A DNA stretch of 64,000 nucleotides, taken from NCBI GenBank assembly GCA_004347695.1, contig SLTK01000010.1:1-64000 (forward strand), written 5' to 3'. The position numbers were made by a program, and so were the translations under genes. This DNA comes from Chloroflexota bacterium. GTDB taxonomy: Bacteria > Chloroflexota > Anaerolineae > Anaerolineales > Anaerolineaceae. The notes under the pieces were generated by a model. That model was not told the DNA's origin and searched no databases. It saw nothing but the letters and a program-made list of their open reading frames with translations. Below are positions 56,508 to 56,615 of this stretch, piece after piece. Positions within the stretch are counted from its first letter, which is position 1; every line of letters starts with the position of its first letter.

Positions 56508-56615
56508 GCTTAGGGTGTACGTGGGGCTTTTTTAATTCGCCTTCAAAAGGCCGTTATTCTGCAAAAACCCCACACCCTAAGCAAGTGTAGGCGAAGCAGG
56601 ATAGCGGCCCTTTGA
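56508..56615 (+). ncRNA. Candidate structured RNA/leader with interlocked stems A:C and B:D
   Basis: A 56508-56532 pairs with C 56563-56582 (GCTTAGGGTG/CACCCTAAGC, TGGGG/CCCCA, TTTTT/AAAAA); B 56543-56562 pairs with D 56596-56615 (17 Watson-Crick, 2 G-U, 1 mismatch). Starts ~7 nt after TATAAT. Confidence 0.7.

What the first reader, a model, noticed from the sequence alone, without database searches (positions are those of the whole stretch)
56508..56615. Interlocked 20-bp stems (A:C and B:D): candidate pseudoknotted or switching RNA
Seen: A (GCTTAGGGTG-tacg-TGGGG-c-TTTTT) is complementary to C (AAAAACCCCACACCCTAAGC). B (TCAAAAGGCCGTTATTCTGC) is complementary to D (GCAGGATAGCGGCCCTTTGA). The order is A-B-C-D, so the stems cross. 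In B:D, two of three non-Watson-Crick positions are G-U on the plus strand, favouring RNA in that sense. D is followed by a U-rich tract (TTTGATTTT). TTCGCC (56536) can also pair with GGCGAA (56590). Inference: the two long stems probably cannot both form fully because loops are short, so this looks like an attenuator/switch or a pseudoknotted regulatory RNA. I recognise no known family.
Basis: partly seen in the sequence, partly recalled or inferred. Interest (0 to 1): 0.85.

Follow-up and report, generated by a model that had tools for sequence, protein, structure and literature searches.

The report
Three-way interlocked satellite leader RNA
Small virus-like elements in Chloroflexota bacteria carry, right at a promoter next to their integration gene, a new roughly 108-letter RNA in which three long stems all cross one another; evolution has kept every stem pairing, which suggests a genetic switch and gives a natural test case for whether an RNA can tie itself in a knot.

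Summary
The 108-nt stretch has three mutually crossing stems: A:C (~20 bp), TTCGCCT:AGGCGAA (7 bp) and B:D (~19 bp), in the order A-T-B-C-T'-D. Four further copies were found: one in a second element of the same genome and three in related genomes (same family). All keep all three stems through wholesale compensatory change: 98.7% of pair cells pair, 27 of 45 pairs change on both sides, 0/500 shuffles reach this. In all five a sigma70-like promoter lies so that the predicted first transcribed G is the first paired base of A:C, and D is followed by 7-8 U in 10. No Rfam family matches. The hosts are terminase-carrying phage-satellite-like elements (four loci) and one prophage-like element; the RNA lies upstream of, or near, the integrase gene. 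Coarse geometry says A:C and B:D can coexist, but the middle stem and a fully closed B:D cannot: 2-4 bp at the base of B:D must open. My best reading is a transcription attenuator: B:D is the terminator, and A:C plus the middle stem hold its base open. RNA identity and pairing are close to certain; function is inferred. Most novel reading not excluded: a natural knotted RNA.

The parts
56473..56501 (+). sigma70-type promoter TTGACA-17-TATAAT (12/12)
   Evidence: in all five loci the -10 hexamer ends 6 nt before the predicted +1 (scores 12, 8, 11, 10, 10 of 12)
56508..56508 (+). predicted transcription start (G), first paired base of stem A:C
   Evidence: same register in 5/5 loci
56507..56518 (+). 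A1, 5' arm of lower A:C stem
   Evidence: 7 of 12 pairs change on both sides, 100% of cells paired
56523..56531 (+). A2, 5' arm of upper A:C stem
   Evidence: 6 of 8 pairs change on both sides
56536..56542 (+). T, 5' arm of the middle stem (TTCGCCT)
   Evidence: 3 of 7 pairs change on both sides
56543..56562 (+). B, 5' arm of B:D stem; starts with an A tract
   Evidence: 11 of 18 pairs change on both sides
56563..56571 (+). C2, 3' arm of upper A:C stem
56572..56583 (+). C1, 3' arm of lower A:C stem
56589..56595 (+). T', 3' arm of the middle stem (AGGCGAA)
56596..56615 (+). D, 3' arm of B:D stem
56610..56619 (+). U-rich tail of the putative intrinsic terminator (7 of 10 U)
   Evidence: 7-8 of 10 in all five loci
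56627..56631 (+). Shine-Dalgarno-like GGAGG
   Evidence: sequence
56637..56852 (+). 71-aa ORF, first gene after the leader, unknown family
56930..58504 (+). large serine recombinase (integrase of the element)
   Evidence: Resolvase, Recombinase, Zn_ribbon_recom
50010..58500 (.). approximate extent of the mobile element that interrupts comM (N half 49353-50009, C half 58501-59376)
   Evidence: terminase large subunit at 53344-55161, AAA_25 ATPase at 51712-52713

Best explanation
A new family of 5' leader RNA that acts in cis as a transcription attenuator for a small integrase-proximal operon of Chloroflexota phage satellites and related prophages. Transcription starts at the first base of stem A. 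Shown by sequence and covariation: the RNA can form three crossing stems, A:C, T:T' and B:D. Inferred: B:D with its A-tract/U-tract base is an intrinsic terminator. As the polymerase moves, A:C forms first, T:T' next and B:D last. A:C puts B in a closed loop, and T:T' pulls on the 5' end of B, so the last few pairs at the base of the terminator cannot close and transcription reads through. When T:T' or A:C is prevented or opened by an unknown signal (protein, antisense RNA or polymerase pausing), B:D closes to its base and transcription stops before the genes.
For: Covariation of all three stems in five loci, slid controls at 37-49% of cells paired against 98.7%. The predicted start coincides with the first pair in 5/5, and the U tract is kept in 5/5. 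A:C and B:D are nearly isoenergetic in every homologue (-27.8/-26.9, -29.6/-30.8, -28.2/-29.8, -29.1/-27.8, -30.5/-31.2 kcal/mol), as expected for a balanced switch. The nested minimum-energy structure is A:C until D is made, then flips to B:D in all five. Coarse rigid-helix modelling: A:C with full B:D is feasible, all three are not, and all three become feasible once 4 bp at the base of B:D open. T:T' alone excludes the last 2-4 bp of B:D. Linkers B-C (0-2 nt), T'-D (0-1 nt) and T-B (-1 to 2 nt) are tight in all homologues. The RNA lies directly upstream of the integrase gene in L031, one gene upstream in L006 and L032, and near recombinase genes in the window and in L007.
Against: No transcript or termination data exist for any of these organisms. 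The terminator would have a loop of about 33 nt, far longer than usual, and the tail is U-rich, not a pure U run. In the window a GC-rich hairpin and a palindrome separate the 71-aa gene from the recombinase, so the recombinase may not be on this transcript. The first gene differs among loci. The geometry is coarse (A-form rods, no electrostatics, straight linkers).
Confidence: 0.45

Rival explanations
1. A stable folded 5' cap for the messenger RNA: the fully paired 5' end and the knotted leader block 5'-end-dependent decay, or the ~20-bp stems are RNase III processing sites that set the life of the integrase message.
For: The first transcribed base is paired in 5/5. A:C and B:D can coexist sterically. 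The stems are about two helical turns, the size RNase III uses (own knowledge).
Against: A single hairpin would do this. It does not explain the conserved middle stem, or the U-rich tail and A tract at the base of B:D in all five.
Confidence: 0.2
2. A processive antiterminator RNA or polymerase-binding RNA that acts like HK022 put or Tn916 canT, letting polymerase read through later terminators in the element.
For: Position directly behind a promoter of a mobile element, a compact fold, and no linked regulatory protein. put and canT are known cis-acting RNAs of mobile elements (PMC9378689, PMC11658703).
Against: No sequence or structural likeness to put (two simple stem-loops of ~70 nt, PMC9378689) was found. 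The U-rich end points to a terminator in the element itself.
Confidence: 0.12
3. A trans-acting small RNA that ends at the B:D terminator, for instance an immunity RNA like that of satellite P4.
For: Promoter, compact 108-nt structured RNA and a terminator-like end. Two copies with near-identical T and B but different A:C sit in one genome.
Against: The only second place in the genome with a match is the other copy. Read-through into an immediately following Shine-Dalgarno and gene in three loci suggests a leader.
Confidence: 0.13
4. A DNA-level site (attachment, packaging or replication site) whose repeats merely look like stems.
For: It lies in a mobile element near integrase and terminase genes.
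Against: Arms change sequence freely while pairing is kept. G-U outnumbers A-C 7 to 2. The promoter register is fixed. In L031 the element end lies at the tRNA-Leu beside the 3' end of the integrase, on the other side of that gene from the RNA.
Confidence: 0.04

Closest known systems
Three-knot or L-type genus-1 pseudoknot (ABCABC)
   Same: The order of stems is exactly that of the L fatgraph ({[)}] named in PMC10691146; the type is described as rare in PMC11203014.
   Different: Here it is a conserved natural family with two stems of ~20 bp, and simultaneous formation of all pairs is not shown.
Leader attenuators with intrinsic terminators
   Same: Promoter, leader, GC-rich hairpin with U-rich tail, then genes; competing structures.
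   Different: The competing stems share no bases with the terminator; competition would be steric and topological. The terminator loop is ~33 nt.
put RNA of phage HK022 and canT of Tn916 (processive antitermination RNAs)
   Same: cis-acting structured RNAs of mobile elements that govern transcription read-through (PMC9378689, PMC11658703).
   Different: No shared sequence or fold; put is two stem-loops, and a 291-nt piece of canT was inactive.
Phage P4 leader and CI RNA immunity (own knowledge)
   Same: A satellite element controlling transcription through RNA-RNA pairing near its promoter.
   Different: P4 uses a trans-acting RNA; no trans target was seen here.
Designed RNA or DNA trefoil knots made from interlocked complementary segments
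   Same: X-Y-X'-Y' order with helices of a turn or more (own knowledge); PMC5381007 states that pseudoknots with two helices of about 11 bp or more can adopt a knotted form.
   Different: Natural, with a third crossing stem and free ends.

Membership tests
L-type (three-knot) pseudoknot | three helices that all cross one another | tested here: met
   each helix supported by pairs changed on both sides (7/12 and 6/8 for A:C, 3/7 for T, 11/18 for B)
L-type (three-knot) pseudoknot | all three helices formed at the same time | tested here: inconclusive
   infeasible at full length, feasible with 4 bp of B:D open
Intrinsic-terminator attenuator | promoter just upstream of the leader | tested here: met
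   (sequence match only; no transcript data)
Intrinsic-terminator attenuator | GC-rich stem followed by a U-rich tail | tested here: met
   7-8 U of 10 in 5/5; but loop ~33 nt, so the consensus scan (loop 3-8) did not list it
Intrinsic-terminator attenuator | mutually exclusive antiterminator structure | tested here: inconclusive
   the middle stem excludes the last 2-4 bp of B:D in a coarse model only
Intrinsic-terminator attenuator | termination that changes with a signal | not testable with these tools
   needs transcription assays
put-type processive antiterminator | put-like ~70-nt RNA of two stem-loops | tested here: not met
   different architecture; definition from PMC9378689
Any Rfam 15 family | covariance-model match above gathering score | tested here: not met
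Phage satellite (host element) | integrase, replication genes and terminase without capsid genes on a ~8-10 kb element | tested here: met
   for window, L006, L031 and L032 (L032 is a contig fragment)
Phage satellite (host element) | dependence on a helper phage | not testable with these tools
   needs mobilisation assays; L007 is prophage-like with a virion structural/tail-like protein

The most novel reading that the evidence does not exclude
The leader folds with all three stems largely formed and its backbone is a true topological knot: a naturally evolved, conserved knotted RNA, made while the 3' end is still held by the polymerase. In the coarse model 72% of A:C+B:D conformations and about 99% of three-stem conformations are knotted when closed (method checked).
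Probability: 0.15. Interest if true: 0.95.

Novelty: new variant of a known kind. Interest (0 to 1): 0.78.

Why it matters
Natural RNA structures with three mutually crossing helices are described as rare, and RNA knots are almost absent from solved structures (PMC11203014, PMC11218946). A conserved family with two interlocked ~20-bp stems and a third crossing stem, starting exactly at a predicted promoter, makes two open questions testable on one 110-nt molecule: whether cells use topological exclusion as a switch, and whether natural RNAs ever knot. It also points to RNA-level control in phage-satellite-like elements of Chloroflexota; a text search of the held library found only passing joint mentions of phage satellites and this phylum.

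Tried and rejected
Weak matches L004 and L005 and the 19-28 bit CM matches L019-L028 and L030 lack the three stems and are chance or simple hairpins. Viral-contig pattern hits contain no such structure. TerL relatives in viral contigs (L051) and in G112 (L061), and integrase relatives in several dozen further genomes, lack the RNA. The 102-aa gene that follows the RNA in two loci occurs in an 82-kb viral contig with its own promoter-like sequence and no RNA, so the RNA is not tied to that gene. Phage and plasmid nucleotide collections gave no real match. Class and order scans found nothing outside the family (strict filters, so weak relatives could be missed). A first bead-by-bead 3D model was too slow. 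An attachment-site reading was dropped.

Full report
Observation. The three complementary pairs are at the stated coordinates. Written in order the arms are A 56507-56531, T 56536-56542, B 56543-56562, C 56563-56583, T' 56589-56595 and D 56596-56615; A pairs with C, T with T' and B with D, so all three stems cross one another. A structure-only search with this order of stems had one hit in 1.28 Mb of shuffled sequence.

Homologues. A DNA search of the own genome and 200 relatives gave a second copy in the own genome (C3:38436) and one in a genome of the same family. A covariance model built with only the A:C pairing then found two more distant full copies (L017 in G095 and L018 in G012).

Covariation. 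On the five loci, with the arms placed in register and internal bulges left out (alignment A6, no gaps), 98.7% of 225 cells pair. 27 of 45 pairs change on both sides, the covariation score is 0.691 against 0.274 for shuffles (0/500), and sliding the partner by 1-3 columns drops pairing to 37-49%. Every stem has its own support: A1 7 of 12 pairs, A2 6 of 8, middle stem 3 of 7 (TTCGCCT:AGGCGAA becomes TTTGTCT:AGACAAA and TTTGTCA:TGACAAA), B:D 11 of 18. The caveat is that arms were placed by eye on complementarity, that one internal loop of L017 and a few linker or stem bases of others were cut out, and that the five loci are related; the middle-stem changes are the least numerous. Seven G-U cells against two A-C cells favour plus-strand RNA.

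Promoter and end. The window has a perfect TTGACA-17-TATAAT. In all five loci a promoter-like pair with a 16- or 17-nt spacer ends six bases before a G that is the first paired base of A:C; the L002 promoter is weak (8 of 12). The transcript is thus predicted to begin with a fully paired 5' end. At the other end D is followed by 7-8 U in 10 and B begins with a matching A-rich stretch, in all five; this looks like an intrinsic terminator whose base is an A-tract/U-tract. The terminator scan did not list it because the loop is about 33 nt.

Context. In the window the RNA lies in an ~8.5-kb element that splits comM (49353-50009 and 58501-59376) and carries an AAA_25 ATPase, a probable small terminase (by position only), a large terminase and a large serine recombinase. 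L006, L031 and L032 are similar small elements with ATPase and terminase genes and a tyrosine integrase, with helix-turn-helix and primase-polymerase genes shown for L006 and seen in L032, and no capsid genes seen. These are satellite-like; dependence on a helper is not shown. L007 is prophage-like, with a virion structural/tail-like protein. The RNA is directly upstream of the integrase in L031, upstream of a 102-aa gene plus integrase in L006 and L032, upstream of 182- and 147-aa genes and recombinases in L007, and upstream of a 71-aa gene in the window, where a hairpin and a palindrome separate that gene from the recombinase.

Energetics and geometry. A:C and B:D differ by at most 1.6 kcal/mol in each homologue, while the middle stem is -5.6 to -13.5 kcal/mol. 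Nested co-transcriptional minimum-energy folding gives A:C until D is complete and then B:D; A:C and B:D share no bases, so in reality they could form together as a pseudoknot. A rigid A-form helix model shows that they fit together at full length in the window sequence. The three stems together do not fit in any homologue at full length, and fit in all of them once 4 bp at the base of B:D are open. The middle stem alone excludes the last 2-4 bp of B:D, with step lengths of 6.3 A (five homologues) and 7.0 A (four completed before the time limit). Because those base pairs are the A-tract/U-tract of the putative terminator, the middle stem is the natural candidate for a latch. Closing the model backbone gave a knot in 72% of two-stem and about 99% of three-stem conformations (determinant code validated on known knots). 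These numbers depend on random linker paths and are illustrative only.

Mechanism. My best explanation is an attenuator: A:C forms first, T:T' second, and together they keep the terminator B:D from closing at its base; loss of T:T' or A:C lets it close. Shown: the pairings, the promoter-like register and the U-rich end. Inferred: transcription, termination, the order of events and the existence of a signal. Rivals are a 5' stabiliser or RNase III site, a processive antiterminator, a trans-acting RNA, and (unlikely) a DNA site.

Comparison. No Rfam family matches, even at relaxed thresholds (the one tRNA match in L017 is outside the element). The topology is the genus-1 three-knot, L (PMC10691146), described as a rare type (PMC11203014). 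Functionally nearest are leader attenuators and the cis-acting antitermination RNAs put and canT (PMC9378689, PMC11658703), to which it shows no structural membership. PMC5381007 notes that pseudoknots with two helices of about 11 bp or more can knot, and PMC11218946 that knots are exceptional in solved RNA structures; this family is therefore a strong natural candidate to test.

Verdict. A real new structured RNA family with strong covariation of three crossing stems; function inferred. I rate it a new variant of a known kind (regulatory leader RNA), with a categorically new reading (natural RNA knot) not excluded.

Noticed in passing
window 24153-24416 (-): T-box leader (RF00230, 107 bits), the only Rfam match above gathering score in the window.
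   Followed up: no
window 50010-58500: An ~8.5-kb terminase-carrying satellite-like element is inserted in comM/yifB; a related element in G112 (L061) with a serine recombinase is also inserted in comM but lacks the RNA.
   Followed up: partly
L061 4020-4690 and 6705-7370: Two regions that encode comM pieces lie close together beside the G112 element, as if comM were duplicated or hit twice.
   Followed up: no
window 56890-56917: A perfect 28-bp palindrome (AATAAATGCTTCAATTGAAGCATTTATT) just upstream of the recombinase, preceded by a GC-rich hairpin (CAGGCCGCCTT...AAGGCGGCCTG); possible operator or terminator.
   Followed up: no
window 56620-56626 and L003: In the window and L003 only, a second partner for T (GGTGAAT / GCGAAT) lies just before the Shine-Dalgarno, so T could also pair there and extend the B:D stem.
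   Followed up: partly
window 56443-56463 and L002: Repeated TTGTTAAC motifs upstream of the promoter in the window and in the second copy of the same genome; possible repressor operator.
   Followed up: no
L017 (- strand): In L017 the middle arm T (GTTTGTCTA) can also pair perfectly with the 3' end of C plus linker (TAGACAAAC), an extra alternative pairing.
   Followed up: no
L163 2501-2809: The 102-aa protein that follows the RNA in two loci (weakly phrog_38278-like) is 83% identical to a gene of an 82-kb viral contig that has a promoter-like sequence but no RNA element.
   Followed up: partly
window 56507-56615 versus L002: Two co-resident copies keep T/T' and B/D almost identical while A:C has diverged with compensation, as if A:C were element-specific.
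   Followed up: no
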